Shown here: one piece after another, positions 4,818 to 43,931 of the stretch
How positions within the stretch are numbered: position 1 is the first letter of the stretch
How the letters are laid out: each line of letters opens with the position of its first letter
Virus record (IMG/VR): IMGVR_UViG_3300020442_004288
Coordinates: 1 to 50,752 of that record
Strand: one strand, 5' to 3'
Length of the DNA: 50,752 nt
Source: a virus
Position numbers and translations under genes: made by a program
Notes under the pieces: generated by a model
Database searches by the model: none
Told to the model about the DNA's origin: nothing
What the model saw: only the letters and a program-made list of their open reading frames with translations

Positions 4818-5402
4818 ATGGATTATTCAGTAATCATAGCTTCAATTATAAGTGCTTTAGCTACTTTAATTAGTGTTTGGATGAGTCGAAAACTAATACA
4901 TAAAACAAAAGATCCAGTAGTAGAAGATGCGGTTAAAAGTACAAATGTTTATACTGCACTAGATTACACAATGAATGAAATGAAAGCTGATAGAGCTTAT
5001 GTGTTAGAATTTCATAACGGCAGCCATTATTACTCCGGAAGGGGTCAAAAAAAATTCAGTTGCACACATGAAATTGTAGAAGAAGGTATTAGTCATCAAT
5101 GCAATCATTCTCAAGAACATAGAGTTTCAAATTATCATGGCTATATAAGTGAATTGATTGAAAAAGAATCTTTTATATATTCAGATTGCAATCAAATTAC
5201 TGATAAGAATTTTTTAACCTTACTACAAAAATCTGGAACCTGTAGTATAATTAATGTACCAATAAAAACATTAAACGGAAAAATCATAGGAATCCTAGGA
5301 GTTGACTATGTTAGAGCTACAAAAATAACGCAAAAAAAAGAAGATTTTTATTTAAAATTTATGAAACAGCAATCAAGAATAATTGCAGGATATTTATCGT
5401 AA
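4818..5402 (+). CDS. Membrane-anchored GAF-like domain protein
   Basis: This 194-residue protein has one hydrophobic N-terminal helix (about residues 4-22), a short basic stretch (MSRKLIHKTK), then a domain of GAF type. Features of that domain are the segment RAYVLEFHNGSHYYSG, a central SCTHEIVEEGIS, and the terminal strand pair INVPIKTLNGKIIGILGVDY. The N-out or N-in orientation cannot be decided; the basic residues after the helix favour a cytoplasmic GAF domain. GAF domains usually bind small ligands or act as protein-protein sensors. In a phage this could be a membrane sensor, a lysis-timing protein or a superinfection factor; all of these are inference. It starts two bases after the previous stop, so translation is probably coupled. 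Confidence 0.55.
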   Translation: MDYSVIIASIISALATLISVWMSRKLIHKTKDPVVEDAVKSTNVYTALDYTMNEMKADRAYVLEFHNGSHYYSGRGQKKFSCTHEIVEEGISHQCNHSQEHRVSNYHGYISELIEKESFIYSDCNQITDKNFLTLLQKSGTCSIINVPIKTLNGKIIGILGVDYVRATKITQKKEDFYLKFMKQQSRIIAGYLS

Positions 5403-12411: not shown

Positions 12412-12417
12412 AAAATT

Positions 12418-12433
12418 GTGTACTTATATAAGT
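12418..12433 (+). promoter_or_regulatory. GTGTA-type element upstream of prohead protease
   Basis: GTGTA at 12418-12422 is followed by CTTATATAAG and lies 16 bases before the ATG at 12434, just after the portal stop. The arrangement closely resembles the element at 2296. The promoter role is inferred. Confidence 0.4.
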
Positions 12434-13987
12434 ATGGATAATAAATATAAATACAAAGCAACATTTTCAGGAGAAATATTTGCATCTGGGAAAATAGATT
12501 CTCCAGAATTAAATATATCAAAAGCTTCTTTAGATGGACTTAAAGACTTGTTACCTGACGATGTCAATCTGGAAGAAAATATAGATTTGATCGCTGTAGC
12601 CTTTAATGCAGCTTTAGTTAATAAGTTTAATAAAAACGGAGATGGGATTAGTTCTGAAACTGCCGTAAAAGTAATAGATCAATTTAAGCATAAGCCAACA
12701 AACATAGAGCACAATAGAGAAAAGGTTGTTGGTCATATAGTAACTTCATCATTTTCAAGTTTAGAAAGTGGAGAAATTATTTCAAACGAAGAAGCATTAC
12801 AATACAAAAAACCTTTCAACATTTCATTGGGGTCTCTTGTTTATAAAGCAGTAAATAAAGAATTTGCAAAACTTGTAGAAAATTCAGTAGATCCAGAAAG
12901 TGAATTATATCATAAAGTTTCAGCAAGCTGGGAAATAGGTTTCAATGATTATGTTTTAGCAGTAGGTTCTAATAACCTTGAAGAAGCTGAAATCATTTCA
13001 GACCCAGATCAAATTGAGGAATATAAACATTTCTTAAAAGCTTTTGATGGTGATGGAAAATTTAAAGACGGCAGAAGCATTTATAGATTAATTGTTGGAG
13101 ACATACTTCCCTTAGGTATAGGCTTTACAGCAAATCCAGCCGCCGAAGTAAAAGGTTTAATTACAAAAAATTCAAACAAAAAAACAGAGGATGTGGTAGA
13201 AGAAGAAATGCATGATAAGAAAAAAAATGAAAAAAATATTTCACAAATACAAAAAACAACTGTAAATAACAGAAAACATACTATTATGGAAAATCAAGAC
13301 ATTCTAAACGATTTGGTGTCGGCTCTCAAAGACAAAGCCTCCGAAGGCAAGTTCTCTGAAGAAGCTGTAGCTACGGTCAGCAAGATCATTAAGGAAGCTA
13401 TTCTCGAAAAGAACGATTCTTTTGTTCAAGAAAAAGAACAGTTAACTAATGAAAAAGAAAAGCTGGTTAAAGCAAATGAAGAGCAAGCAAAGCAGGCGGA
13501 AGCCATGCAAGAGCAACTTAATGAAGCTCTTGAGAAGGTATCTGCATTAGAACAAGCTCAAGCAGAGCGCAACGCAATTGATACATTTGACTCAAGAATG
13601 TCTGTTATCGAGTCAGAGTATGAGTTGAATGATGAGACTCGAACTGTTGTTGCTAGAGAACTTAAATTGGTTGAGGCTTCAGAAGAAGCTTTTGCTCAAT
13701 ACCAAGAAAGGATCTCTGTTATCTTGAAACATCAAAATAAACAATTTATTGAAGAGCAACAAAAAGCTTTTGACGAAAAACTCGCTGAAGCAGTTGAAAA
13801 AAGGATTCAAGAATTAAATAGCACAGAAGCTTCCGATGAAGAAGTTGTTGAAGAGGCTATTGAAAAAGTTGAATCTGAAGAAGAAGTTGTTGCTAATAAC
13901 AATGGAGAATCTTCTGAAGAAGAGTTATCCATGAGAGATAAGTTCAAAAAAGCTTTCTCTGAAGACAATTTAACCATTAAATACTAA
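12434..13987 (+). CDS. Prohead maturation protease fused to capsid scaffold
   Basis: With ATG 12434 this is 517 residues; an in-frame TTG at 12416 would add six and overlap the promoter-like element. The N-terminal ~240 residues resemble prohead serine proteases: H93 in NIEHNRE and the VSASWEIGF segment (S163/S165, E167) fit the His-Ser-Glu arrangement of the gp21-type family. The C-terminal half (from ~residue 285) is a highly charged coiled coil rich in E, K, Q and A, ending in an acidic stretch and a basic tail (MRDKFKKAF), as in scaffolds. It would shape the prohead and then be degraded. Base composition changes near 13286, where an internal ATG may give a separate scaffold. The next gene follows after a good AAGGA ribosome site. 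Confidence 0.7.
   Translation: MDNKYKYKATFSGEIFASGKIDSPELNISKASLDGLKDLLPDDVNLEENIDLIAVAFNAALVNKFNKNGDGISSETAVKVIDQFKHKPTNIEHNREKVVGHIVTSSFSSLESGEIISNEEALQYKKPFNISLGSLVYKAVNKEFAKLVENSVDPESELYHKVSASWEIGFNDYVLAVGSNNLEEAEIISDPDQIEEYKHFLKAFDGDGKFKDGRSIYRLIVGDILPLGIGFTANPAAEVKGLITKNSNKKTEDVVEEEMHDKKKNEKNISQIQKTTVNNRKHTIMENQDILNDLVSALKDKASEGKFSEEAVATVSKIIKEAILEKNDSFVQEKEQLTNEKEKLVKANEEQAKQAEAMQEQLNEALEKVSALEQAQAERNAIDTFDSRMSVIESEYELNDETRTVVARELKLVEASEEAFAQYQERISVILKHQNKQFIEEQQKAFDEKLAEAVEKRIQELNSTEASDEEVVEEAIEKVESEEEVVANNNGESSEEELSMRDKFKKAFSEDNLTIKY
13286..13987 (+). CDS. Possible separately translated scaffold (internal in-frame start)
   Basis: An in-frame ATG at 13286 begins MENQDILNDL, exactly where the protease-like part gives way to the coiled coil. 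From here codon choice shifts towards the less AT-rich style of the capsid gene (for example GGC, CTC, GTC, AAG), unlike the first part of the frame. A TGTAAATAA at 13261 lies 25 bases upstream and resembles the GTGTA element seen before other starts. Lambda and other phages express a scaffold from inside the protease gene in this way. A 233-residue product would result. No strong ribosome binding site is visible, so independent expression remains a hypothesis. Confidence 0.35.
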   Translation: MENQDILNDLVSALKDKASEGKFSEEAVATVSKIIKEAILEKNDSFVQEKEQLTNEKEKLVKANEEQAKQAEAMQEQLNEALEKVSALEQAQAERNAIDTFDSRMSVIESEYELNDETRTVVARELKLVEASEEAFAQYQERISVILKHQNKQFIEEQQKAFDEKLAEAVEKRIQELNSTEASDEEVVEEAIEKVESEEEVVANNNGESSEEELSMRDKFKKAFSEDNLTIKY

Positions 13988-30779: not shown

Positions 30780-31579
30780 TTCTTATTAATATAAGTTTTG
30801 TAATTTAATTGAACTTTAATAACTCCATCTGCACTAGAACTAAAAGATTGATTTAGCAATCTTGCTTTTTTTAATGTAAATGTTTCTATATTGTTATCGT
30901 TTATAGGGTTAGCAAAAGATATTGTTATGTCTTGTTGCTTTGGTTTAATTAAATACTCTCTCATTCTAGTAATTTGAAAGTCATCAATTTCTAAAGAAAA
31001 GCTAGCTTGTTGAACTAAAGGAGTTTTTCTGTCAACTTGAACTGGATACGGCGAGCCAATTTTATAAACAGGAGATCTATCTACTCTGAGGGAATAACTA
31101 AAGTCCGTTATTCTATTACTTTTATAACCACTTGCATTTAAAGATATAGAGCCTTGGTTGGGTATTTGTATATCTGGATGAGAGTTTGATCCAGAAGAAT
31201 CTATACCAGAACCTATATTGCCATAAACTGAGATGCCAGCACTTGCCGTAGGTATACTTCCAATTGAACAATTAATAGAATAATCTGTTAAATATCCAGA
31301 CTCAAAACCAAAACTTTTATTATCATAATTAATACTTCCACTAAGAGGATTGTCTCCAGTATAATTCAATATAGGCTCTTGACCTATATAATATTTTGAT
31401 ATAGAAAATCTACCTACCATAGGGCCTGTTCTATCTGGAAAGGTATAACCCTTCCCGATGATATTGATTGGAGATTCACTAATTGAGTATTCCCCGCCAA
31501 CAGCAGTTACTCCAGATAATTGAACTCCTGACAAATAAAATTGATGCTCGTAATTCGCTATTGCATTTTTAGTTGCCAC
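30776..31579 (-). CDS. Tail-tube-like beta-sandwich structural protein
   Basis: This 267-residue protein begins at GTG 31579 within the end of the tape measure frame (11-base overlap), with GTAGGAGG as ribosome site eight bases upstream. It is mostly short beta strands (SGSINYDNKSFGFESGYLTD; YSINCSIGSIPTASAGISVY), a pattern typical of tail tube or distal tail proteins. The next gene is its paralogue. In lambda the tube gene comes before the tape measure rather than after it, so a tube-like distal ring is as likely as the main tube. Role inferred. Confidence 0.5.
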   Translation of the reverse strand: MATKNAIANYEHQFYLSGVQLSGVTAVGGEYSISESPINIIGKGYTFPDRTGPMVGRFSISKYYIGQEPILNYTGDNPLSGSINYDNKSFGFESGYLTDYSINCSIGSIPTASAGISVYGNIGSGIDSSGSNSHPDIQIPNQGSISLNASGYKSNRITDFSYSLRVDRSPVYKIGSPYPVQVDRKTPLVQQASFSLEIDDFQITRMREYLIKPKQQDITISFANPINDNNIETFTLKKARLLNQSFSSSADGVIKVQLNYKTYINKK

Positions 31580-34500
31580 GAAGCATTCCTCCTACCCTTT
31601 GCTCTTCCGCTATAACTTGGAGAACAGCAGCCTTTAATTTTCCTGCCATTGCCGTTTGACCTTCTGTGGCATTACCTTCTACCGATGTAGCTCCAGAGTC
31701 TGAAGAGCTAGAGCCTACATTTATGTTTACCGTAACATTATTATTAGAGTTGTTTTCAGTATTAGAACTAGAGACATTAGATGAATTTGAGTTTTGATTC
31801 GACACTAAACCTCCTTCAGCAAAACCTCCAGACTTATTCAGTCGATCAAGCATGCCGGGATACTCTCTCTCCATTTTTTGCACACTTCTAGATCTAATAA
31901 CAAATTCTCCCTCATCAAGCATAAGGGGTCCAACTCTATCGATTCCAGCAGGACCAGTAACAGATCCGCCTTCACTATAGCCTTTTATATTTCCATAATT
32001 ATTGACTGTTCCACCCAGAAAGTATTTCATGGCTTTTGCTTGAGGAGTGATAGCATCGTTATAAATTCTATTTAAATTTTGCTCAACTTGTTTGTTGATG
32101 GTCGTCTGATTCATTGCGGTACTATTGGTTACAGAACCGCCTGAGGCATATTTTAAATCTTCTAGCGCTCTATAATAGGGAGAACTAGAATCTGTATTTA
32201 GAGACATTGGTATGTGTGAACCAAAATTTTGAGACCAAGCTTTATTTTCTGCCATTGAATAATTTTTATCAATAGCAGCCATTGAGGTTAAGCCTTTTCC
32301 TGCTTGCTGAGCTTCAACTCCAGATTTTGCTCTTGCAATATTGTAATTAGTTGCCCAAAGCTCCGAACTGCTAGGAGAGGTTTTAGCTTTAAAATTATCT
32401 GCAAACCCCGGTCTACCTGACGCGGTATAACTACTCCACCACTCAGCTGCATCTTTTCCGCTAAGTTTTGATCCAGTTTTATCATTTTGTACTGCCCAGT
32501 CTGACATGTGTTGAGCGGCTGGAGATTGAGTTTTTCCATCGCCAGCCATAAAGTCTACTCTTCTTCCTCCTTCAGTTGCATAAACATTTCCAGTTTTATC
32601 TCTATGTATTTTTACTACTTCTCCTGATGGACCTTTGCCGACATTCATTCCACTACCATTCATTTTAGCTCCATTGTATCTATTTTGTATACTATTACCA
32701 ATAGAACTTCCTATTGCAGCACCCGCTAAACTTGCAAGGCTATTTGCTATCTGCCCTATATATTTAGCTCTATCTGCAACTTTTTTGTTTTGTTTTTGAA
32801 CATTGTATTCGTATTTATCCAATAAGTATTTTGCATAATCTTGACTAGTGGTATCCATTTTTCTAAACCTACTACTTAGTCTAGGATCTCTAATATCCAA
32901 ATCTAATGTGCTAGAAGTATTAAGTTTATTCATTTTTGGAGGCTCTGGTGGACCTGCACCGGGAGCTTGTTTTTTTCTACCCATATATGCACCAAGGGCA
33001 GTACCTCCCATCATACCCACTCCATAACCTATATCATTCCAATTCTGATCTTTAGTTCTTTGTCTTGATATATTTTGGACTCCGCCGCCATAATTATAAT
33101 GACCAACAACTCCGCCAGAAAAAAGTTTTTCAATGGTTTTGCTTGTAGAATTTGAAACAGACCCACCTTCCTTGAAGTTGTTATTAATCTCCTTTAGTCT
33201 CTCCTCTATCCTTTCTGTTCCATTTGAGTCCTCTGAGGGAGAGTTTGCGGAAAGCATACCTCCACCCACTAGAGGCGCAGAGAGTGTTTGCATTGGGGAA
33301 TTAGAAGGAGAGCCGAAAGATTGCATATCTCCACCAAGAATATCGAAAGTTTCAGAGTTTGGTTTTTCAAATAAATCCTCTAAACTTTCGCCTCGATTCA
33401 TTCTTTCTAATGCTTGCCTGCCAATACTATCAACAGCTTTTTTTCTAACTACATATTCGCCTGCTGTGAGCATGGCTGGAACATCACTTTTTGTTCTGCC
33501 TCCACTATTAAAATTAGTAACCATTCCACCTGTGTGAAATTTATTCATTCCCATCATGTCGAACAAACCAGCAGTCATTCTATCTGCCGCTTGATCAAAC
33601 ATTTTGTCTTGTATTTTACCAGCTATGCTGGCTGCCATTTTTAAAAATGCATCTCCGGCACTCATTGTCCCTTCGGATAAATCCTTAAGGAGACCCTTGA
33701 ATCCATCTTTAACTCCATCAAATGCAGTTTCAGCTAAAGTTTCAGAAAATCTAGCAGCCCGTTCTGTAGCTTCAGCAATTTTAACATTAATCGTGTCCCA
33801 GAATAAAGTGTTTCGACCAGCTTCTATATTAAATTCTTTTAGATTTTTAGCTAAATCTACATTAGCTTCATTACTCTTTAAAGTATTGCCTGACATGCCA
33901 TAACTGTCTCTTCTTGCTTGAGATTCTAAAACTTTATCCTCTGCAGCAGTTAGGGCTTGCCTTCTGTCTGTCCCAGCTTGTATTCCGAAAAAGTTCTTGT
34001 CTTTTCTGGCCTTTAAGGTGTCTTCTGAATTTTGAGCATCTCTTTCAAGTTGCTCTATTTCATTATCAACTCTTGCTTCAACAGCTCTTAATAAAGATTT
34101 CCTGACAACACTTTCTTCTTCAGATAGTTTACTGCTTTCGTTTAAGGTTCTTAAAATGTCTGTTTCTAGTTTTAACTGCTCTGTTTCTAGATCCATTGAA
34201 GTAAGTTTATTTGCAACACTTTCTTCAAGAAGTTGCCTTTCTTCTTTAGCTTTCTGCAAGGATAAGTTATCTTCTGCAATTCTATTTTCAATAATTGATC
34301 TAGTTTCTTTTATGCCTACAGTATCAGAAGCTTGACCATCTGTAGGTTTTTTTCTTTCATTTAACTGTTCTCTAAGTCGAATTGTTTCCGCCTGATTTAG
34401 TGCTGTTTGTTCTTCGAGATCAGCAACTATTTTTTCTCTTAACTCTTGAATCTTAACATTAGTTTTTAATTCGTTTAATAGTATTTTAGCTTTACTGCTT

Positions 34501-37500
34501 GATACATCGGATTCACTTCTCTCTAGAGAAAGTTGCATTGCAGCCTCCTGCCTCATAGACTCTTGATTTGAAAGCATGTCGTAATTCTGGTCTATTTGAT
34601 TTCTTTTAGTTTTTACAGTTTCTTCAATAGCCAGTCTTTCAAGATCACTTCCTTTTAAAACTCCAAGTTCGGTTTTGATGCCATCTCTTCTAAGTTGAGA
34701 TATTACATCTAATTGAGCTATTGATTTTATTCTTGAAGATTGCTCGTTCTGTAAAGTATCTTTTATTCCAGAAATAAACTTGGTATATTCTACTTCATCG
34801 GCACTGCCTTGAATTATAAGATTAACCCTATCTGTAAGTGCTTGATCAACATTTTTATTATTTTGAAGGATTGATCTTATTATTCCTGCAGACTGATTTT
34901 CCATCTTTGCTTGATCCATGGAGGAAATCGCTGCTTTTTGTGCTTCAGCAGTTCTAGTTCTTTGTAAAAGAGACATTTTTACACCTTCCTCAGTTACGGC
35001 CATAGCGGCTTCTTTTGCAGAAGTTTCAGCCTGAATTGTAGCTAGTCTCAAATTACCAATTGCCTCGATAGAACTCATGCTCTCTAGGCGACCTTTACTT
35101 TCTTCAATAATTTGTCTTTGTTGAGCCTCTTCTAGTTCTAATTTTTTTGCACCCAAAGCCCTAAGCTGCTCTTGTAGTTTTACTTGTGCTGGACCAGCTT
35201 CAATAAGAGAATCTGGAAGAGAAGTTTTTAAGTCTATCAACTGTTTGCTAATCTCATCAATTTCTTCATTGACCAGAATTTGCTTTCTGGAGACAGAGGT
35301 GCTTCCGGGAGTTCCAGTATCTCCACGTCCCATTCTTACGCCCCTGTTCATCTGAGCTAAAAATTCCAGTATACTTCCTCTACTTTGACTATCTTGCTCG
35401 TTATATCTTTGCGCTGTTAGGCTATTGGAAACACGGTTCTGCATTGAAGTTGCAAATCTACCTCCCATTCTTGCATTATCAAAAGTTTGCCCTAGTACTA
35501 CAGCTTCTGCAGATCTTCTATCTCCAAATTTATCAGTTTGCACTCTAGATAGTTGCTCTGTAGTCATGTTTTCTAGCTCGCTAGTAGACCTTTCCACCGA
35601 AGAGTATTTATTAATTACCTGTATTAAAGACTTTCTGAACTCTTGGTCAGTTTTTTGCATGTTTGCTTCTCCCGCAAAAATAGCAGACATTTCTTTTGCT
35701 AATTGCATTTGATCAGCTGTCATATTTTTTAAGGCGGTATCCATTTTTATATTACCAACTTGAGTGTCTGCTGTCTCTCTGATGTTTGCAGTTTGTTGAG
35801 TTACTGTTTCTATGTTTCTTAATTTATCATTAAGTACATCAGCTTGCATAGTTAGAATGTTTCCGTCTTGATCTCTTAAGTTTCGGTAAAATTGTCTAAA
35901 ATCTTCAAAACCTTCTTTTGCACTAATTGCACCTTCATTTAGAGCTTTATTTACTTTTTTAATTTTATCAGCCAAATCTTTTAGTTGATCGTCTGCAACA
36001 TCCCCATTAAATAATTGTTGAATCTGGCGGGTGTCAGAAGTAAGACTTACGGCATCTACGTTTGCTCTTCTGATTTCAGAGTCTGCGTTTTGCTGAACTG
36101 ATTGAATTTGAACATCGCCAGCTTGTTCATTTAGAGCTCTTTGCGATGCTACATTCATTTTGTTTAGAATACTTAACCTAGCATTCATCAAACTCAACTC
36201 TTTCTTTAACATATTATCTCTATGTTTAAATTCAGCATTTTGAAGAGTAATTGCATGTTGTAAGTTTTTATTAAATTCCTTTCTCCTCATTGTGGAGGCT
36301 TTGATCTCTTTTTCCTCTTCTTTAGCCGCTTGAAATTCTTTTCTAACTTGTTCGGCTCTATCTTTAAGGACTTTATTCATTTGGTCCCTAGTATAACCTT
36401 CGTCTTGCATTTCTAGCATAAGTGCATTCATTGAGGTAGCAAGGCTCTTGGCACTTTCTTGAGAAATTTTATCCAGAGAAGGATCTTCTGCTACTGTTCT
36501 TAGTTTATTCTCAAAAGCTTTTAGAGATTCATCTGCATCACTACCTTCTAAAGTATCCATTAATGCATCAAAACTTTTAGTATCTAAGTCTAATCTGCCA
36601 GCTTGCTCTCCAAATATTTTTGCAGTAGTTTTTGTTTGGTTCTTAACATCATCACCCATTCCAAGTATATCACTATCACCCAGCCAAAGGTCAAGTCCTT
36701 TTGTTGAAGCTTCTTCAAAGCCTTCTAACTGTTTTTTGATAAATGCATCTGTGTCCAATAAATTACTCTGCCTTTGAACTTCGTCTCGTGTTGCAGTTCC
36801 AGATTGTATTCTTTCATTTAATTTTAAAATTTCATTATCTAAATCACTTCTTTCATCACTGTCCTTGCCTTCAATCCTATCAACAACATCTTCTGAGGCG
36901 TCAGCAAATTCATTCATTGCTTCAGCCGCTCTTCTTTGAGCTTTTATTAAATCGTTTGTTAACTTATTTATTTCAAGCATGTCCTTAGAAGAAATCTCTG
37001 CATCATTTTTTGCATACATATCTTCTAATTTAGATTCTATACTATCAATTTCGTCAAAAGCAGCCATAGATTCAGCGGCTTTTTCAGTTGCTTCTTGCAA
37101 TTCTTCCAGTGAATTGGTATATTGATTTGACATTCCAACAGCCTCCATTAGGCTTTGGGCATAGGAACCTATATTAATATCAAATGCACTAAGTATTCCG
37201 GCTACCGCCTGAAAACCAGTAATGACCCAACCTATTGGATTGCTAAGACGTCCAAATAAAGATCCTACTTTAGCTACAGTACCCACTACTTGGCCTAGCA
37301 TCCTACCTCCCTTCATAACTGTTTTTATGGTATTACCCATGCCTCTGGCCATTCCAGCAATTCTACCAAAGGCTCCCGGCAGTTTGCCAGCCCTTGGAGT
37401 GCGAGTCGCTAAAGACTTACCTTTAGAATCTTTTAGTACTGGCCCAGAAGTTACGGCTGGATTTACCGTAGCAGTTGTAGCCAAGGGTCCAACGGGTTGA

Positions 37501-40500
37501 GATAATCCGGGAGTAGTCGCTCCACCTTGCATACCTGCTACAGCAGAACAGGCCGCAGAAACATTCTTTTCAATACATTGAGATTGTTTTTCTAGCGCGT
37601 CTGATCCCGCATCAGCCATATCTGATATTTTACTTTGAGTTTCTGCTATTTTCTTAGCTGCACCACCGTCTTCACCCATTCCCGCTTTAGCTTTTTTCCA
37701 GACATCAGAAAAACTGCCCCCTTCTGCTGTTCCTTGTTTCATGGCATCGCCAAATCGACCAAGTTCTTCTCCAGCTTTTCTCATCCTCCCTGCTATAGGT
37801 CCTAATGCACTCCAAACTAAAGCTGTATTCGCTATAGTTTGTATAATGTCATTGAAAGTTCCCATGAAATTCATACCCGTTTCTTCGAATATTCCTTGCA
37901 TTGCATATGTGGCTGTAGTTAATCCAAACAGACTCATTTGCATTTTTTCCATACTTTGAGCGGTTCTTTCGTAGGCGGTGCCATCTACGACAGCTTGCCC
38001 TCCCCCCTCATAGTTTGGAATAAAACCTTTAGCTGCACCATATTGCTGGGGGTCTCTTCCTTCCAATTTAGCTCTCCTAATTCCCTGCTTTATACCTCCG
38101 GGCTCATCTCTTAAATTAGTAACTGCTAACCCAAGAGGGTTTTGTTCATTTTCTAAACTCTTATCTTTTTCTATTCTTATTTGGGATTTAGGAATACCAG
38201 CTTGTCTTTCTCTGTTTATTGCTTCTTTTAGTGCGTCAGATTTAGCGAAATTTGGAATAAGGCCAAAAGATGCAGCAATTCTACCTTCGTATGTTGGGTC
38301 TGAGTATTTAGCAAAAGACCTACCGGGACTATCCTGCATTCTTCGTGCAAATTTTCTATTGTAAAATTTAGTTACTTTTTCCTGTAGTTCTGGTGGGAGT
38401 TGTCTAAATTCATCTGAGCTTATATACTGTCTAAGATTTTGAATAGTTTGATTTGCAACGTCTGCATTTCTTCTTGGTATCTTAAATAATTCAGCTCCAC
38501 TTAAACTTTTTAGTGGAGGGGTAATCATATTTTTAGAATTAAATCTAGCTAAAGATGTACTAAGTTTTGCATATTCTCTACCAGCTATTCTAGACTTTAT
38601 AAAGTTAGGTATAAGACCTTTTGCAGATACTTTTGCGCCCTTAGGAACCATAACATTAAGGTTACCTAGATCCCTGATGGGCATATCAGGTTTCCTATTT
38701 AAAATTGGGGGCTCTTTTCTGCCCGCAGTTTTCAACCATTGATTTGCACCTTTTCTTAAAATTTGAGTTGGGCTTTGACTTGCTTTTGTTTTTACTTCTA
38801 TTCTCTCGCCACTTGCTGTTCTAAGATCAAAGTATTCATTGCCTTGGCCAATCTTGGCTCCTGTTGTTCGAGCTGCTGAAACTTCACCTTCAATTCCAAT
38901 AACATTATTTCTAATGCTATTTTTTTGCCCTTCATTTCGCTTTCTTGGATTTAATTGATAGTTTCTGATGGCGGTAGTAATTGACTGTAATGTGCTTTTG
39001 TCTGCCCCAGCATTCATACTATCCCTCATCCATTTGTTACCTACATGAATTGATGCAGGTTTTGTGTCTCTAAATGTTGGGTCATTTAATAATTGTGAAG
39101 TAATAGAATTTGCATCAGAATTAAATTTTTTAAAATCTTTGTTTTGATAAAAAGGTACTACTGTCGCCTTAAACATATCCATGTCATCAACTGGATGTTT
39201 CTTTTGCTCGCGCATCATACCGCCACCCATACTGGCATTAATTTCTTTAACAGTTTTTTGTATTGGTATGGGAGAACCTTTATCAATAGAGCCTTCTAAG
39301 TATCTTCTGCCTGAAGGTCCATCAAAAATATTTGAATAGTCAACGAAATTAGGAATAAAACCTTGTCCCGCATTAATTGTTTCAAAACGCGCGGATTGGC
39401 TTTTAAGCAATTCAATAAATCCATCTTGATTCTTAGGAGCTTTTAATGTTCCTTTTAATTGCCTCTCAGACCTTAGGTCTCCAGCCATTGGGCTTGCAAT
39501 TCTTTTTTGCCGCCTATCTTCTATTGTTTTGTCACTTGCTGCAATGTAAGAAACTTTTCCTCCTGATTTATTAACAGATTGTATTATTTGCTGTAACTTT
39601 GGAGATAGTCCAGTTTTAGATAAGCCTGCTCCAGAAAGAATAGTGAAAACAGAAGCATCATCCAAATCATCTAAAGATTGTATAAAGTTACCTTTTTTGG
39701 CAGCACGGGTTGATTTACCTACTCCAGAGGGTCCTATCATTAAATCTTTTTTAGCTTGAGCATTTAAAATATTGTTTAAAATTTCAGTAGCCGCACTAGA
39801 CCTTAATCTATCAGAATCAAAAACTTTGTTTGCAAAACTAGGAATGAATCCTCCAGCAAAACCATTTTTGAACATTGCAAGATCTTCAATTGCAACACTT
39901 GTGCTAGAAAGTGGATCTAGACCCATTGCTCTTAAATAATTTGCTACCTCTCGTTCTTCGCCTTCCTTGTAATCTTCTTTAGAGGCAAAAGGACTTCCGT
40001 CTGCTGATCTTTGCTTGTTTTCATGAATATACTGCATCAATTTTGATGGAGTCATGTCTCCACTAATTTTCATTCTAGGAATATTCTTTCCTGAAGATCT
40101 TTGTCTGTTTAGTAGTTTGTGACCTTCTACCAAAAGTCTTGGTATTCTTGGCCCAATAACAAAACCAGCTTTTAAGTCTGTATATGGTCTTCCTGCTTTT
40201 GCGGACTCTGTAATATCTTTATATATAGATCTTATTTGGGCTGGACCTTGACCTCTTTCTGGACTAATCCATGTAAGATCTAGTGCTCTTGGTTTTACGG
40301 AAGAGCTACCTTTTCTTGCTGGTAGCAAACCTTTAGCCGCTTGACCATAAATATTATCAGCCATTTCAGGTTTTGTATTGACTGTAGTTAAGTCTTGTAT
40401 AGATATTACATCCATACCGGGCATGCCGGGATAAGCCCCCAATGCATCTTTAAAACCTTGCCTATCCATTTTATTAACACTGCTTCTTAACTCCTTCAAG

Positions 40501-43500
40501 CTGTCAAATCTAATTCTCTTTCCTTCTGGTCCATGTATTAGCCTGCCAGTAGTAATTAAGTTAGGTTGCATTCTGTATTGCAATTGAGGAAATGCATGAA
40601 CCAAGTCTTCAAAGTTAGTTTTACTCCCTTGCTTGTAAGACTTTTGTTGCTTAAGTGAAGGAGATGTATACGCACCCCCTTCTTTCATAAATTGCCCACC
40701 CGCCTCACGTTTAAACATTTTAAATGCGTCACCTTTTTTATTGGATTGTAAGAAATCTATTTCCCTGTCTCCAATTTCATTGGTTGTATAGTTCATGTAG
40801 GAGCCAGTTTCAGTTTCTGCTATCTGTCTACCTCTTCTCCCAAAACCTCCATCTAGTCTTATGGCTGTATTTTTAAAAGCAAAATTAGGAATGTATCCAG
40901 AGGCAGTAAATGTTTCTAAGATTTTTTTTCTTTTCTCTTCAGGAGGCATACTACTATGTATTAAACCTTTTGATTCTAACAGTCTTTCGCTCTTTCTATA
41001 ATTAGCAGTATTTAGTCCCGCTACTAAATTTTGAACATCAGGGTGATTATCATTAACATATTTTAAAAAATCGTAGTCAGAATAAGATCTTAAACTTTTA
41101 TACAAAAGGTTTCCTAGGGAGTATCTTCCTTTTTTATTTTCTATCGGCCTCAAGCCTTCACCAATTAAGTCGGTATTAAAAGTATCATTACCATCTTTAC
41201 CTCCTGTAGAAATATATTTTTTAAATTGCTCTGGCAAAACCTTTTTGCCATCTGGAGTAATTCCTAATCCTCCAGCAAGACCAGATTCTGATTTTAATTG
41301 TTTGATTGCTTTGGATTTACCATCACCAGCTGAATGTAATTGTTGCAACTTAGCTCTTTCACTTAACTCTCCGTCAGTTTCGTGTTTTTTTCTTTTAAGC
41401 ATTGTGCTTTTGGCAGCTCCTTGAAAAAACATATCACGACCTATTCTATTTACTCCTTTTGATTTTAAGGTTTGAAGTAAATCATATAAGGGGGCATTAT
41501 GACTACCCCTTGCTGAAGTAATTTCGTCAAGCCCAGCTTCTACATACATTGGTTTACCGCTTTTAATCGCAGCTTCAACCTGTTTATCTAAAGATCTATT
41601 TCTTAGTCCGCCAGAACCTACAGCCACACTTTGAAATGCTGGATTTAATTTAAGTAAATCACCTTCTCTTCTTGCAAAATTAGGAATAAAACCCTCCCCG
41701 TAGGCACTTGGATTATCTACTCCAAACCTACTTATTCTGATTTGATTTGGAGGTGTACCATAAAATATTTCACGAGAAGAACCTTTTCCTCCGACTCCGT
41801 AGCCAGTCATTTCTTTTTTATAAGACCGAAGTAAACCTTCTACGATTTCTTCTAAAGCTCCGGGTTTAGCTCCATCTAAATTATATTCTTTTCTTAACCT
41901 AGACTCAATATTTTTCCTGAGTTCTAAATCTGTTTTTTCTTTTTGTTTAAATTTTATATTTTTATTTGCAGGATCTGCTAAAGCCCTTCTAATCTTTACA
42001 TCTCTAGGTGTTCTGTCAACAAAATTTGGAACAAACCCTTGTGCAGCATAAGGATCAAAGCCATGAACTTCATTGAAAGTTTTTTGATATTTTTTTCCAG
42101 CCCTACTTGATTCTGGTGGCATAATTGCTGGCTGTCTCATTCCTTTAAACTTTTTTATTTTTTCAGCTTGATTATAGGCAACTTCACCAACACCGGGAAT
42201 GTCCATTACTTTTACTGCTCCAGCTGTATAGCCAGCCTTTGTTGCTTGAGACCTTTCAATTCTTTCTTGCTCAGAGGTAGCCTTTTTATTAAAATTAGGA
42301 ATAAAGCCTTTGGCTGCTCCCGTTGTAGGCATAGTCAAATCTGTATTAACACCGGCCCTAGCTAGCGCTGGGGCTAATTTTGATGCAATTTGCATTTGAG
42401 CTTCCATTTGTTTAGTTTGAGCTTCTATTACCCCAAGTATTATTTGTTCTTGTTTAAGTTTATCTCCTGCAGCTTTATTTAATTCATCTGCTAAAATTCT
42501 ATTTTGAGACATTGCCTCAACTATACCTTCTTGAATTTTCTTTTCTCTATCTTTTTGTGTTACAATACCTAAAACATCTTTCAGGGATTGTTTGGCAAAT
42601 TTTAATGCATTAAAAAATAATTTAGCAAATACACCAATAGCTAAGACCATACCCGGACCAGTAATTACATTACCAATACCCTTGACTATTCCTTTAGCAA
42701 AATCAGAACCAATTCCCTGAGAATCATCTGATAATAAATTGTTTAAAGAATCTCCTATAGAATTAATTTTTTCTAATAAAGATTCAATTCCCGGAGCTAA
42801 TGCTAACTCACCAAGATTTGCGGCTAGTTCTTGTAGGGTTAGGCTTGTTTGAGCTGCTAAAGAAGATAAAGTTCTGTTCAGCATTGCATTTTTTTGAGCA
42901 GCTTGATCGGTTGCAGAAGAAGAAACTTTTAATGCTTGGGCATTTAATGAATTTGCATTAGCTAAGTCTTTCATTGCGGCTTTTAAAATATTGATCTGGA
43001 AAACACCACCAACTTGTTCTGCTACAGCTGCTTTTGTTGAATCCCCAAGAGTATCATATGTTTTTGCTAAGCCCGTCAAAACTTGCATTGCAGGCAAAGT
43101 CTCGCCTTGAACATTTCTAACAGCGACACCTAATTCTTCTAGTCTATCTAAAGTAGAACTTCTTTGAAGTCTAGTAAAAATTGTCTTAAAACTATTTCCT
43201 ATTACAGCACCTCCTCTTGCAGTAATTTGTTGAGCAGAAGTAACTGAAGCTATTAATTGATCCATACTTAAGCCAGCCTCTTGAGCCACGGCTCCAGCTC
43301 TAGATAAAGCATTAACAAGATCATCGGCACTAACTGCAAACTTTACATCTACTGCAGCCAATTTATTAATAACGTCTGTAGTGCTAACGCCAGCATCGGC
43401 ATAACTGTTCACTGCTGCGGTTAAACCTTTTACAGAATCGGCTGCTTTCATACCAGTTAGTCGAGTTAATATGAGAGCATCGTTTGTTCTTTTTAAGGTT

Positions 43501-43931
43501 TCTTCCATACTTAAACCTTGTCTAGAAAATTCTAATGCTGCTTCAGCAGCAGTATCTAAAGTCTGTGCTGTATTTCTTGCTACATCAAATAACTGGTTTC
43601 CAAATTTCTCTAAATTTGCAGCTGATGTACCTAGAACTACATTTATATCTGTTAAAACTTTTTCTACTTTTACTGCCTGCACAACCATTTGTTCGAAAGC
43701 TTTACCAACTGAACCTATGATTGCTGCTGATGCACCAAATGCTATAACACGAGCATTTGAGGCTTCTATAGATTTTTGAAATTCATTCGCCTTATCAGTG
43801 ATTCTGCCAAGAGGTTGAGTAAAATTGCTAGCATTAAGTTTAACTGGCAATCCCCTCCTGTTAATCCTGTTGACGATAGCATTAAGCTGCTCCTCAAATC
43901 CGACTGGTCTTGTAGTAATATCTAGTGGCAT
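31569..43931 (-). CDS. Giant tail tape measure protein with embedded enzymatic-looking segments
   Basis: This 4120-residue protein sets tail length. Residues ~20-400 form a TP901-type tape measure core (SVGKAFEQMVVQAVKVEKVL; ARNTAQTLDTAAEAALEFSR). Hydrophobic segments lie near 430, 2000 and 2230; long helical coiled coil covers about 2280-3440. C-terminal motifs DVPAMLTAGEYVVRKKAV (near 3480) and LMLDEGEFVIRSRSV (near 4000) are related to each other. Residues 542-1974 carry nine G(F/Y/L)(I/V)P(N/S)(F/Y) motifs dividing unlike segments, including a P-loop (GPSGVGKST, 1400-1408) and a PD-(D/E)XK-like site (D1702, E1712, K1714). A fully helical 4120 residues would span about 600 nm, an upper limit because the embedded segments look globular. 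The ribosome site is AAAGGAATAAGGT before the ATG. Confidence 0.9.
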   Translation of the reverse strand: MPLDITTRPVGFEEQLNAIVNRINRRGLPVKLNASNFTQPLGRITDKANEFQKSIEASNARVIAFGASAAIIGSVGKAFEQMVVQAVKVEKVLTDINVVLGTSAANLEKFGNQLFDVARNTAQTLDTAAEAALEFSRQGLSMEETLKRTNDALILTRLTGMKAADSVKGLTAAVNSYADAGVSTTDVINKLAAVDVKFAVSADDLVNALSRAGAVAQEAGLSMDQLIASVTSAQQITARGGAVIGNSFKTIFTRLQRSSTLDRLEELGVAVRNVQGETLPAMQVLTGLAKTYDTLGDSTKAAVAEQVGGVFQINILKAAMKDLANANSLNAQALKVSSSATDQAAQKNAMLNRTLSSLAAQTSLTLQELAANLGELALAPGIESLLEKINSIGDSLNNLLSDDSQGIGSDFAKGIVKGIGNVITGPGMVLAIGVFAKLFFNALKFAKQSLKDVLGIVTQKDREKKIQEGIVEAMSQNRILADELNKAAGDKLKQEQIILGVIEAQTKQMEAQMQIASKLAPALARAGVNTDLTMPTTGAAKGFIPNFNKKATSEQERIERSQATKAGYTAGAVKVMDIPGVGEVAYNQAEKIKKFKGMRQPAIMPPESSRAGKKYQKTFNEVHGFDPYAAQGFVPNFVDRTPRDVKIRRALADPANKNIKFKQKEKTDLELRKNIESRLRKEYNLDGAKPGALEEIVEGLLRSYKKEMTGYGVGGKGSSREIFYGTPPNQIRISRFGVDNPSAYGEGFIPNFARREGDLLKLNPAFQSVAVGSGGLRNRSLDKQVEAAIKSGKPMYVEAGLDEITSARGSHNAPLYDLLQTLKSKGVNRIGRDMFFQGAAKSTMLKRKKHETDGELSERAKLQQLHSAGDGKSKAIKQLKSESGLAGGLGITPDGKKVLPEQFKKYISTGGKDGNDTFNTDLIGEGLRPIENKKGRYSLGNLLYKSLRSYSDYDFLKYVNDNHPDVQNLVAGLNTANYRKSERLLESKGLIHSSMPPEEKRKKILETFTASGYIPNFAFKNTAIRLDGGFGRRGRQIAETETGSYMNYTTNEIGDREIDFLQSNKKGDAFKMFKREAGGQFMKEGGAYTSPSLKQQKSYKQGSKTNFEDLVHAFPQLQYRMQPNLITTGRLIHGPEGKRIRFDSLKELRSSVNKMDRQGFKDALGAYPGMPGMDVISIQDLTTVNTKPEMADNIYGQAAKGLLPARKGSSSVKPRALDLTWISPERGQGPAQIRSIYKDITESAKAGRPYTDLKAGFVIGPRIPRLLVEGHKLLNRQRSSGKNIPRMKISGDMTPSKLMQYIHENKQRSADGSPFASKEDYKEGEEREVANYLRAMGLDPLSSTSVAIEDLAMFKNGFAGGFIPSFANKVFDSDRLRSSAATEILNNILNAQAKKDLMIGPSGVGKSTRAAKKGNFIQSLDDLDDASVFTILSGAGLSKTGLSPKLQQIIQSVNKSGGKVSYIAASDKTIEDRRQKRIASPMAGDLRSERQLKGTLKAPKNQDGFIELLKSQSARFETINAGQGFIPNFVDYSNIFDGPSGRRYLEGSIDKGSPIPIQKTVKEINASMGGGMMREQKKHPVDDMDMFKATVVPFYQNKDFKKFNSDANSITSQLLNDPTFRDTKPASIHVGNKWMRDSMNAGADKSTLQSITTAIRNYQLNPRKRNEGQKNSIRNNVIGIEGEVSAARTTGAKIGQGNEYFDLRTASGERIEVKTKASQSPTQILRKGANQWLKTAGRKEPPILNRKPDMPIRDLGNLNVMVPKGAKVSAKGLIPNFIKSRIAGREYAKLSTSLARFNSKNMITPPLKSLSGAELFKIPRRNADVANQTIQNLRQYISSDEFRQLPPELQEKVTKFYNRKFARRMQDSPGRSFAKYSDPTYEGRIAASFGLIPNFAKSDALKEAINRERQAGIPKSQIRIEKDKSLENEQNPLGLAVTNLRDEPGGIKQGIRRAKLEGRDPQQYGAAKGFIPNYEGGGQAVVDGTAYERTAQSMEKMQMSLFGLTTATYAMQGIFEETGMNFMGTFNDIIQTIANTALVWSALGPIAGRMRKAGEELGRFGDAMKQGTAEGGSFSDVWKKAKAGMGEDGGAAKKIAETQSKISDMADAGSDALEKQSQCIEKNVSAACSAVAGMQGGATTPGLSQPVGPLATTATVNPAVTSGPVLKDSKGKSLATRTPRAGKLPGAFGRIAGMARGMGNTIKTVMKGGRMLGQVVGTVAKVGSLFGRLSNPIGWVITGFQAVAGILSAFDINIGSYAQSLMEAVGMSNQYTNSLEELQEATEKAAESMAAFDEIDSIESKLEDMYAKNDAEISSKDMLEINKLTNDLIKAQRRAAEAMNEFADASEDVVDRIEGKDSDERSDLDNEILKLNERIQSGTATRDEVQRQSNLLDTDAFIKKQLEGFEEASTKGLDLWLGDSDILGMGDDVKNQTKTTAKIFGEQAGRLDLDTKSFDALMDTLEGSDADESLKAFENKLRTVAEDPSLDKISQESAKSLATSMNALMLEMQDEGYTRDQMNKVLKDRAEQVRKEFQAAKEEEKEIKASTMRRKEFNKNLQHAITLQNAEFKHRDNMLKKELSLMNARLSILNKMNVASQRALNEQAGDVQIQSVQQNADSEIRRANVDAVSLTSDTRQIQQLFNGDVADDQLKDLADKIKKVNKALNEGAISAKEGFEDFRQFYRNLRDQDGNILTMQADVLNDKLRNIETVTQQTANIRETADTQVGNIKMDTALKNMTADQMQLAKEMSAIFAGEANMQKTDQEFRKSLIQVINKYSSVERSTSELENMTTEQLSRVQTDKFGDRRSAEAVVLGQTFDNARMGGRFATSMQNRVSNSLTAQRYNEQDSQSRGSILEFLAQMNRGVRMGRGDTGTPGSTSVSRKQILVNEEIDEISKQLIDLKTSLPDSLIEAGPAQVKLQEQLRALGAKKLELEEAQQRQIIEESKGRLESMSSIEAIGNLRLATIQAETSAKEAAMAVTEEGVKMSLLQRTRTAEAQKAAISSMDQAKMENQSAGIIRSILQNNKNVDQALTDRVNLIIQGSADEVEYTKFISGIKDTLQNEQSSRIKSIAQLDVISQLRRDGIKTELGVLKGSDLERLAIEETVKTKRNQIDQNYDMLSNQESMRQEAAMQLSLERSESDVSSSKAKILLNELKTNVKIQELREKIVADLEEQTALNQAETIRLREQLNERKKPTDGQASDTVGIKETRSIIENRIAEDNLSLQKAKEERQLLEESVANKLTSMDLETEQLKLETDILRTLNESSKLSEEESVVRKSLLRAVEARVDNEIEQLERDAQNSEDTLKARKDKNFFGIQAGTDRRQALTAAEDKVLESQARRDSYGMSGNTLKSNEANVDLAKNLKEFNIEAGRNTLFWDTINVKIAEATERAARFSETLAETAFDGVKDGFKGLLKDLSEGTMSAGDAFLKMAASIAGKIQDKMFDQAADRMTAGLFDMMGMNKFHTGGMVTNFNSGGRTKSDVPAMLTAGEYVVRKKAVDSIGRQALERMNRGESLEDLFEKPNSETFDILGGDMQSFGSPSNSPMQTLSAPLVGGGMLSANSPSEDSNGTERIEERLKEINNNFKEGGSVSNSTSKTIEKLFSGGVVGHYNYGGGVQNISRQRTKDQNWNDIGYGVGMMGGTALGAYMGRKKQAPGAGPPEPPKMNKLNTSSTLDLDIRDPRLSSRFRKMDTTSQDYAKYLLDKYEYNVQKQNKKVADRAKYIGQIANSLASLAGAAIGSSIGNSIQNRYNGAKMNGSGMNVGKGPSGEVVKIHRDKTGNVYATEGGRRVDFMAGDGKTQSPAAQHMSDWAVQNDKTGSKLSGKDAAEWWSSYTASGRPGFADNFKAKTSPSSSELWATNYNIARAKSGVEAQQAGKGLTSMAAIDKNYSMAENKAWSQNFGSHIPMSLNTDSSSPYYRALEDLKYASGGSVTNSTAMNQTTINKQVEQNLNRIYNDAITPQAKAMKYFLGGTVNNYGNIKGYSEGGSVTGPAGIDRVGPLMLDEGEFVIRSRSVQKMEREYPGMLDRLNKSGGFAEGGLVSNQNSNSSNVSSSNTENNSNNNVTVNINVGSSSSDSGATSVEGNATEGQTAMAGKLKAAVLQVIAEEQRVGGMLRGN
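38010..42308 (-). repeat. Nine dispersed GFIPNF-type motifs in the tape measure
   Basis: The motif occurs at plus-strand positions 42291, 42021, 41676, 40881, 39834, 39345, 38601, 38247 and 38010 (first base of each 18-base stretch), i.e. residues 542, 632, 747, 1012, 1361, 1524, 1772, 1890 and 1969. Forms are GFIPNF, GFVPNF, GYIPNF, GFIPSF, GLIPNF and GFIPNY. Spacing ranges from 79 to 349 residues and the sequence between is not repeated, so these are boundaries rather than tandem repeats. Confidence 0.9.

What the first reader, a model, noticed from the sequence alone, without database searches (positions are those of the whole stretch)
38010..42308. Tape measure protein divided by nine GFIPNF-type motifs into cargo-like segments
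Residues 542-1974 of the 4120-residue tape measure contain nine copies of G(F/Y/L)(I/V)P(N/S)(F/Y) at uneven spacing (79-349 residues). Sequences between them differ from each other and do not look like the helical rod expected of a tape measure; at least two show catalytic-type motifs. This suggests a modular cassette: constant boundary motifs with exchangeable domains, perhaps enzymes carried in the tail lumen and delivered into the cell with the DNA. I believe similar motifs occur in other marine phage tape measures but know of no description of their function.
Basis: partly seen in the sequence, partly recalled or inferred. Interest (0 to 1): 0.88.

Follow-up and report, generated by a model that had tools for sequence, protein, structure and literature searches.

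The report
Swappable cargo cassettes in phage tape-measure
A giant tail-ruler protein of an uncultivated phage, and over a hundred relatives, carries an internal string of unrelated, mostly enzyme-like domains that are swapped whole between phages exactly at a short repeated motif, which suggests an exchangeable payload carried in the tail and injected into the host with the DNA.

Summary
The 4120-residue tape measure protein (window 31569-43931, minus strand) has exactly nine GFIPNF-type motifs at the stated places, against about 0.0005 expected in shuffles; a tenth, degenerate one (GLLPAR, residue 1201) splits the longest segment. I found 145 tape measure proteins with such arrays. Their 466 cassettes fall into 102 families. 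The layout is fixed: N-terminal ruler domain, a constant left cassette, one to eight variable cassettes, a constant right cassette, then the rod. Close relatives differ by whole cassettes. Breaks in homology lie within 10 residues of a motif in 85-96% of events (chance 16-17%). Synonymous codons at the motif are near random, so it is kept as a protein element rather than a DNA recombination site. The window's cassettes are unrelated to each other by profile comparison. Contents look enzymatic: several PD-(D/E)xK-type nuclease families, a zeta/adenylate-kinase-like P-loop domain, kinase-like, ADP-ribosyltransferase-like, and one SNase above Pfam's cut-off. None of those tested occurs in 50,697 phage records. 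Delivery into the host and the job of the motif (linker, docking or cleavage) are inferred, not shown.

The parts
31569..43931 (-). Tape measure protein gene, 4120 aa, host of the cassette array
   Evidence: single open frame; PhageMin_Tail 5e-22; PHROG tape measure families
42309..43931 (-). Constant N-terminal tape-measure domain (residues 1-541)
   Evidence: 15 IMG/VR relatives at 31-58% identity; PhageMin_Tail 118-309
42591..42665 (-). Single strongly hydrophobic segment (residues about 423-447), just before the array
   Evidence: Kyte-Doolittle >1.6; present in the N-terminal part of 95 of 98 relatives, mostly about 120 or about 205 residues before the first detected motif
42039..42308 (-). 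Cassette 1 (residues 542-631), left constant cassette, family 5; begins with motif GFIPNF
   Evidence: family 5 is first in 18 of 18 arrays (family 2 first in 62 of 62)
41694..42038 (-). Cassette 2 (residues 632-746), small domain related to family 7; motif GFVPNF
   Evidence: profile match to family 7, 94.8%
40899..41693 (-). Cassette 3 (residues 747-1011), family 4, PD-(D/E)xK-like (invariant D175, E185, K187); motif GFIPNF
   Evidence: invariants over 21 members; AlphaFold pLDDT 79.6, pTM 0.76; no structural match
40332..40898 (-). Cassette 4a (residues 1012-1200), family 12, unknown function; motif GYIPNF
39852..40331 (-). Cassette 4b (residues 1201-1360), family 13, unknown function; degenerate boundary motif AAKGLLPAR
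   Evidence: poor AlphaFold model
39363..39851 (-). Cassette 5 (residues 1361-1523), family 6, P-loop NTPase, zeta toxin/adenylate kinase-like (GPSGVGKST); motif GFIPSF
   Evidence: pLDDT about 88 over most of the domain; Foldseek prob 0.99 to zeta toxin 6epi, 0.95 to adenylate kinase 9r72, but E 0.02-0.06
38619..39362 (-). Cassette 6 (residues 1524-1771), family 18, PD-(D/E)xK-like (G..GE..A, FDL, EVKTK); motif GFIPNF
   Evidence: E160, D179, E189, K191 invariant among the 3 members aligned
38265..38618 (-). Cassette 7 (residues 1772-1889), family 8, small unknown domain; motif GLIPNF
38028..38264 (-). Cassette 8 (residues 1890-1968), right constant cassette, family 1 (NPxGLxVxNxRDEP); motif GLIPNF
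   Evidence: 65 members; last cassette of the array in 58
38010..38027 (-). Closing motif GFIPNY (residues 1969-1974)
31572..38009 (-). C-terminal rod and tail of the tape measure (residues 1975-4120)
   Evidence: helix-rich, 4.9% Gly+Pro in residues 2271-3440

Best explanation
The tape measure protein is a carrier with a socket. Between its membrane-associated N-terminal domain and its rod it holds an array of independent soluble domains, each opened by the boundary motif A-A-x-G-[FY]-[IV]-P-N-F-A. The array is capped by a constant left cassette and a constant right cassette (shown). Whole cassettes are gained, lost and swapped between phages, presumably by recombination in flanking homologous sequence, with protein junctions at the motif (junctions shown). 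Many cassettes are enzymes of the kinds phages use to take over or disarm a host: nucleases, P-loop and protein-kinase-like domains, ADP-ribosyltransferase-like domains (inferred from signatures; one SNase passes a curated cut-off). During tail assembly the array is threaded, probably unfolded, into the roughly 4 nm tail lumen. On infection it leaves with the tape measure ahead of or with the DNA, refolds in the host and acts at once on host or defence targets (inferred). The motif works as a protein element, either a standard flexible joint that lets each domain fold alone, or a docking or processing site (inferred; these cannot be told apart here).
For: Nine motifs, far above chance. In all fetched DNA (0.8 million aa of ORFs) all 654 strict motif matches lie in multi-motif ORFs and none in other ORFs. 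145 array-bearing tape measures, 466 cassettes, 102 families. Left families always first, right family last in 58 of 65, the rest permuted. Clean swap: L131 and L142 are 90% identical in DNA upstream, carry unrelated middle cassettes, then are 99% identical from the first base of the next motif. L098, L139 and L141 differ by whole-cassette insertions or deletions. Homology breaks lie within 10 aa of a motif in 85% of 87 events and 96% of 23 non-redundant events, null 16-17%. Motif codons near background. Nearly all cassette families with measurable pairs are under purifying selection, dN/dS 0.04-0.41. Catalytic triads invariant at low identity: family 0 E178, D197, K224 over 30 sequences with 20% mean column identity; family 3 E202, D229, K256, with D254 at least 90%; families 0 and 3 are homologous, 98%. 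SNase PF00565 above cut-off. 113 of 139 arrays hold a nuclease-like family. Precedent for nuclease cargo on a tape-measure relative: Tme (PMC11126660).
Against: No direct evidence of packaging or delivery. The window's nuclease-like cassettes rest on short catalytic signatures: the modelled one has no match in PDB or BFVD, and no window cassette reaches a Pfam cut-off. The zeta/adenylate-kinase resemblance is by Foldseek probability with E of 0.02 or worse. Kinase-like and ADP-ribosyltransferase-like labels were not confirmed by PDB profile search. Several cassettes have no recognisable function. Folded domains of 250-350 aa in several copies would not fit a 4 nm lumen, so unfolding and refolding must be assumed.
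Confidence: 0.66

Rival explanations
1. The array acts inside the producing cell: it is cut out of the tape measure at the motifs before or during tail assembly (as lambda gpH is trimmed), and the released domains work late in infection, for example in host DNA degradation or against superinfecting phages. It is not injected.
For: The motif is a uniform short element with small residues before it (A-A-[GS]-G-[FY]-[IV]-P-N-F-A), as one might expect of a cleavage site. Nucleases and kinases could serve late functions.
Against: No obvious reason to encode late enzymes inside a virion protein made in few copies. The position next to a conserved hydrophobic segment fits a virion export role better. 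No protease gene was identified beside it.
Confidence: 0.14
2. Weapon rather than takeover kit: the arrays are polymorphic-toxin-like payloads that kill or arrest cells the phage cannot productively infect, or rival lysogens, with cassette turnover driven by immunity.
For: The cassette repertoire (PD-(D/E)xK, SNase, zeta-like kinase, ADP-ribosyltransferase-like) overlaps polymorphic toxins, and turnover is by domain swapping. MuF toxins of temperate phages are a precedent (PMC5576092).
Against: The payload sits inside a long protein with up to ten domains, not as one C-terminal toxin tip. No immunity genes were looked for or seen. A phage gains little by killing the cell it enters.
Confidence: 0.1
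3. The segments are structural: variable spacer or lumen-filling domains that set tail length or trigger ejection, without enzyme activity; catalytic-looking residues are remnants.
For: Enzyme-bearing stretches of a tape measure can count in tail length: deleting the 114-aa motif 3 of TM4 shortened tails by about 20 nm (PMC1796659). Several cassettes have no catalytic signature.
Against: Close relatives differ by 150-330 residues of array with the rest unchanged. Catalytic triads are invariant at about 20% identity. Globular fold predicted. Composition unlike the rod.
Confidence: 0.07
4. The motif is a DNA recombination sequence (a short repeat promoting cassette exchange), conserved for the DNA rather than the protein.
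For: Junctions of exchange lie at the motif.
Against: Within one ORF, motif copies share synonymous codons about as often as expected from that ORF's usage (G 0.30 vs 0.30, F 0.51 vs 0.49, N 0.58 vs 0.60, last F 0.67 vs 0.64; slight excess for I and P). The nine window copies differ in DNA. Amino-acid identity is kept while codons drift.
Confidence: 0.03

Closest known systems
Polyvalent proteins of phages and conjugative elements (Iyer et al. 2017, PMC5512222)
   Same: Single polypeptides with 2-15 disparate, mostly enzymatic domains (nucleases, kinases, ADP-ribosyltransferases, GNATs) predicted to be injected with the DNA; pervasive domain shuffling.
   Different: Those are carried by head or MuF/portal-linked proteins, virion RNAP-like proteins or T4SS substrates. 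The paper's main text never mentions tape measure proteins (no match for 'tape'), and no boundary motif was found in the passages read. Here the carrier is the tape measure itself and every domain is opened by one motif.
Tape-measure-related effectors of contractile injection systems: Tme (PMC11126660) and Sle1 (PMC13277306)
   Same: A tape-measure-derived protein loaded in a tail-like tube with an exchangeable functional domain; Tme's domain is an endonuclease, and swapping Sle1's domain reprograms its effect.
   Different: One C-terminal domain, bacterial CIS, coiled-coil N-terminus. Here there are 2-10 internal cassettes in a phage (siphovirus-like, lambda-type tail genes), with constant end cassettes and a boundary motif.
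Phage tape measures with enzyme domains (mycobacteriophage TM4 motif 3, PMC1796659; SPbeta YomI-type transglycosylase tape measures, hits)
   Same: Enzymatic domain embedded in the tape measure; in TM4 it is dispensable for viability.
   Different: Cell-wall hydrolases that help DNA entry; usually one domain, no repeated boundary motif, no intracellular-type enzymes.
MuF polymorphic toxins of temperate phages (PMC5576092)
   Same: Virion-associated protein fused to interchangeable effector domains thought to be injected.
   Different: Head/portal protein with one C-terminal toxin domain, often followed by an immunity-like ORF.
T4 Alt and other injected internal proteins (as cited in PMC5512222)
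   Same: ADP-ribosyltransferase delivered with DNA; family 11 cassettes have an ADP-ribosyltransferase-like signature.
   Different: Separate head proteins, not domains of the tail ruler.

Membership tests
Tape measure protein | Homology to tape-measure profiles and position directly before the minor tail/tip genes | tested here: met
   PhageMin_Tail 5e-22; phrog_4211 1.4e-40; lambda-like minor tail and J genes follow
Tape measure protein | Length sets tail length | not testable with these tools
   uncultivated phage; no micrographs
Polyvalent protein | Several domains of disparate biochemical type in one polypeptide | tested here: met
   unrelated cassettes, several with catalytic signatures
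Polyvalent protein | Delivered into the host with the DNA | not testable with these tools
   inferred from the tape-measure carrier only
Polyvalent protein | Contains domains of the published polyvalent set (zincin MPTase, ArdC-N, PBECR, etc.) | tested here: inconclusive
   Pfam scan of 112 cassettes; none of these names among the 25 families shown (of 45 matching at E<=0.05), only isolated GNAT and AAA hits of overlapping type; profile-level search of every family was not done
Polymorphic toxin | Constant N-terminal part with variable domain exchanged by recombination | tested here: met
   but the variable part is internal and multi-domain
Polymorphic toxin | Downstream immunity gene | not tested
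   minor tail genes follow in the window; no immunity search was made
PD-(D/E)xK nuclease superfamily (cassettes 3 and 6; families 0 and 3 in relatives) | Conserved E...D...(D/E)xK catalytic residues | tested here: met
   invariant triads (family 4: D, E, K)
PD-(D/E)xK nuclease superfamily (cassettes 3 and 6; families 0 and 3 in relatives) | PD-(D/E)xK fold or profile match to a known member | tested here: inconclusive
   no significant match; model of cassette 3 has no PDB neighbour
P-loop kinase, zeta toxin/adenylate kinase type (cassette 5) | Walker A P-loop in an alpha/beta fold | tested here: met
P-loop kinase, zeta toxin/adenylate kinase type (cassette 5) | Structural match to zeta toxins or adenylate kinases | tested here: inconclusive
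   Foldseek prob 0.99 (6epi) and 0.95 (9r72) but E 0.02-0.06
Tme/Sle1 CIS effectors | Contractile injection system context; Tme also has DUF4157 | tested here: not met
   lambda-like minor tail genes, no sheath found among the ten tail-region proteins scanned; no DUF4157

The most novel reading that the evidence does not exclude
A phage group uses its tail ruler as a programmable multi-effector delivery rack: two constant end cassettes and a dedicated short protein motif (AAxGFIPNFA) form a standard socket into which about a hundred different effector domains are exchanged, and the motif is a specific release, docking or unfolding signal for loading and ejecting cargo through the tail tube.
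Probability: 0.5. Interest if true: 0.92.

Novelty: new variant of a known kind. Interest (0 to 1): 0.84.

Why it matters
If right, it answers how some long-tailed phages could deliver a large set of host-control proteins without a head-packaged proteome, and it gives a marker (the motif) with which injected effectors can be listed by sequence alone: about 100 mostly unannotated cassette families, likely enriched in host-takeover and anti-defence enzymes, none of those tested present in sequenced isolates. It also offers a natural design rule for loading several proteins into a phage tail tube. The long-open question whether tape measure proteins carry cargo into the cytoplasm becomes directly testable.

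Tried and rejected
(1) Chance or low-complexity origin of the motif: rejected. (2) DNA recombination site: disfavoured by the codon test. (3) One repeated fold between motifs: rejected by all-against-all profile comparison. (4) Cassettes in isolate phages: none for the whole array, the end cassettes or three cargo cassettes. (5) A 1025-aa multi-cassette AlphaFold job was dropped because MAFFT misplaced short rows; single- and double-cassette jobs were run instead. (6) PDB profile searches for families 4, 16, 11, 0 and 3 gave nothing significant. (7) BFVD fold search of cassette 3: nothing. (8) L006/L007, the closest N-terminal relatives, first looked like array-free controls, but they also carry an insert at the same place with a degenerate motif (GMVPGLAPTEVPNF), so they are not clean empty sites. 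(9) Host assignment: only four genome contigs, all from MAGs binned to different phyla, so the host is unknown. (10) Literature: no paper held contains GFIPNF, GYIPNF or GFVPNF as a motif.
Full report
WHAT IS THERE. The window encodes on its minus strand a 4120-residue protein (31569-43931). It has a PhageMin_Tail match at residues 118-309 (5e-22) and PHROG tape-measure matches down to 1.4e-40. The next genes on the strand are lambda-type minor tail proteins and a J-like tip protein, so it is the tape measure of a siphovirus-like tail.

RELATIVES. The N-terminal 546 residues find 15 IMG/VR relatives; 13 carry two or more of the same motifs at corresponding places. With further searches from cassettes 3, 4a, 5 and 6 I assembled 145 non-duplicate ORFs and cut them at the motif: 466 cassettes in 102 families at 55% mutual coverage. 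This sample is biased to arrays with the right-hand cassette and to the window's own cassettes. Neither the array, its end cassettes nor three tested cargo cassettes occur in 50,697 phage records; even the N-terminal domain has only distant matches there.

ARCHITECTURE. The layout is constant: about 545 residues of N-terminal domain, one left cassette (family 2 or 5, first in 62 of 62 and 18 of 18 cases), variable cassettes in changing order, one right cassette (family 1; last in 58 of 65, otherwise mostly followed by a second long motif-bounded block), a closing motif, then the rod. A hydrophobic segment lies in the N-terminal part of 95 of 98 complete N-termini, in most of them about 120 residues before the first detected motif, or about 205 where the left cassette's motif was missed; only 5 of 98 arrays contain such a segment, so the cassettes are soluble. 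The window reads [5][7-like][4][12][13][6][18][8][1]. Its longest segment is two cassettes, parted by a degenerate motif AAKGLLPAR at residue 1201; other phages carry the halves separately.

EXCHANGE AT THE MOTIF. L131 and L142 are 90% identical in DNA up to about 95 bases before a motif, then carry unrelated cassettes (334 and 203 aa), then are 99% identical over 4674 bases, starting at the first base of the next motif. L098 and L141 (96.8-98.5% identical DNA) differ by exactly one cassette, L098 and L139 by two. Over all pairs with blocks of at least 65% identity, 85% of break ends (87 events) lie within 10 residues of a motif; with each protein used once, 96% (23 events); random placement gives 16-17% with a maximum of 39% in 5000 trials.

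THE MOTIF IS A PROTEIN ELEMENT. Its consensus over 615 sites is A-A-[GS]-G-[FY]-[IV]-P-N-F-A. Copies in the same ORF share codons only about as often as that ORF's usage predicts, with a slight excess for I and P. All 654 strict matches in 0.8 million residues of ORFs from these loci lie in multi-motif ORFs and none in other ORFs.

THE CASSETTES. With the motif removed, the best profile-profile match between any two cassettes of the window has 9.9% probability; the only aligned part of families 4 and 0 is the motif. Cassette 3 models as an alpha/beta globule (pLDDT 79.6, pTM 0.76), cassette 5 as a confident P-loop domain (about 88 over most of its length). The array has 14.6% Gly+Pro against 4.9% in the rod. 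Nearly all families with measurable pairs show purifying selection (dN/dS 0.04-0.41), the exception being family 10 at 0.93.

WHAT THEY MAY DO. Cassette 3 (family 4) keeps D175, E185 and K187 invariant over 21 members, and cassette 6 (family 18) keeps E160, D179, E189 and K191 over 3: PD-(D/E)xK signatures. In relatives the commonest cargo, family 0, keeps E178, D197 and K224 over 30 sequences at 20% mean identity; family 3 keeps E202, D229 and K256; the two are homologous (98%). 113 of 139 arrays hold at least one such family. But no nuclease profile or fold match was significant, so 'nuclease' is a signature-level call there. The cassette that replaces another in L142 is an SNase above Pfam's cut-off (27.9 vs 21 bits). 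Cassette 5 resembles zeta toxin and adenylate kinases (Foldseek prob 0.99 and 0.95, E 0.02-0.06). Family 16 has kinase-like GVKKF, DLHGSNYxxN and IDPG motifs and family 11 an R/STS/ExE-type pattern, both unconfirmed by PDB profiles. One of 112 cassettes matched GNAT at 1.5e-4. The remainder, including window cassettes 2, 4a, 4b and 7, are unknown.

MECHANISM. The tape measure occupies the tail lumen (internal diameter about 4 nm, PMC9022992) and leaves it at infection. A cargo array between its membrane-associated N-terminal domain and its rod would be carried with it. [quoted passage not shown] the TM4 precedent shows that an enzymatic stretch can count towards tail length (PMC1796659). Shown here: modularity, exchange at the motif, protein-level conservation, globular unrelated cassettes, catalytic signatures. 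Inferred: packaging, delivery, cytoplasmic action, role of the motif.

COMPARISON. It works like the polyvalent proteins of Iyer et al. (PMC5512222), but the carrier is the tail ruler, which that paper's main text does not mention, and the domains are laid out in motif-delimited cassettes. Tme and Sle1 show that a tape-measure relative can carry an exchangeable effector, one per protein and in contractile bacterial systems. I therefore rate it a new variant of a known kind.

Noticed in passing
L098, L065, L139, L141, L099, L144, L146 (family 10 cassette): Family 10 cassettes show dN/dS near 0.93 in close pairs while nearly all other families are at 0.04-0.41; perhaps fast adaptation against a host target.
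   Followed up: no
L179, L180, L153, L106/L176, L101, L035 after the right cassette: A second motif-bounded block of about 800 aa (family 14), in three cases followed by a 76-aa cassette (family 19), sits after the right cassette.
   Followed up: partly
L020 residues 163-277: Left cassette holds three tandem copies of IPNFNAVRGYGxE, suggesting IPNF itself is the repeated functional unit.
   Followed up: no
L006 and L007, residues about 555-900 of the tape measure: Closest N-terminal relatives have an insert at the same place with a degenerate motif (GMVPGLAPTEVPNF), possibly a single-cargo ancestral state.
   Followed up: partly
window 4818-5402 (+): ORF with a GAF domain (PF01590, 4.3e-5, above cut-off), unusual in a phage structural region.
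   Followed up: no
window 12416-13987 (+): ORF with a weak tape-measure-like PHROG match (3.9e-5) on the opposite strand from the tail genes.
   Followed up: no
L168-L171 (genome contigs): Arrays occur in contigs of MAGs labelled Halobacteriovorax, Flavobacteriaceae and Verrucomicrobiales; probably co-binned phage, so the host remains open.
   Followed up: partly
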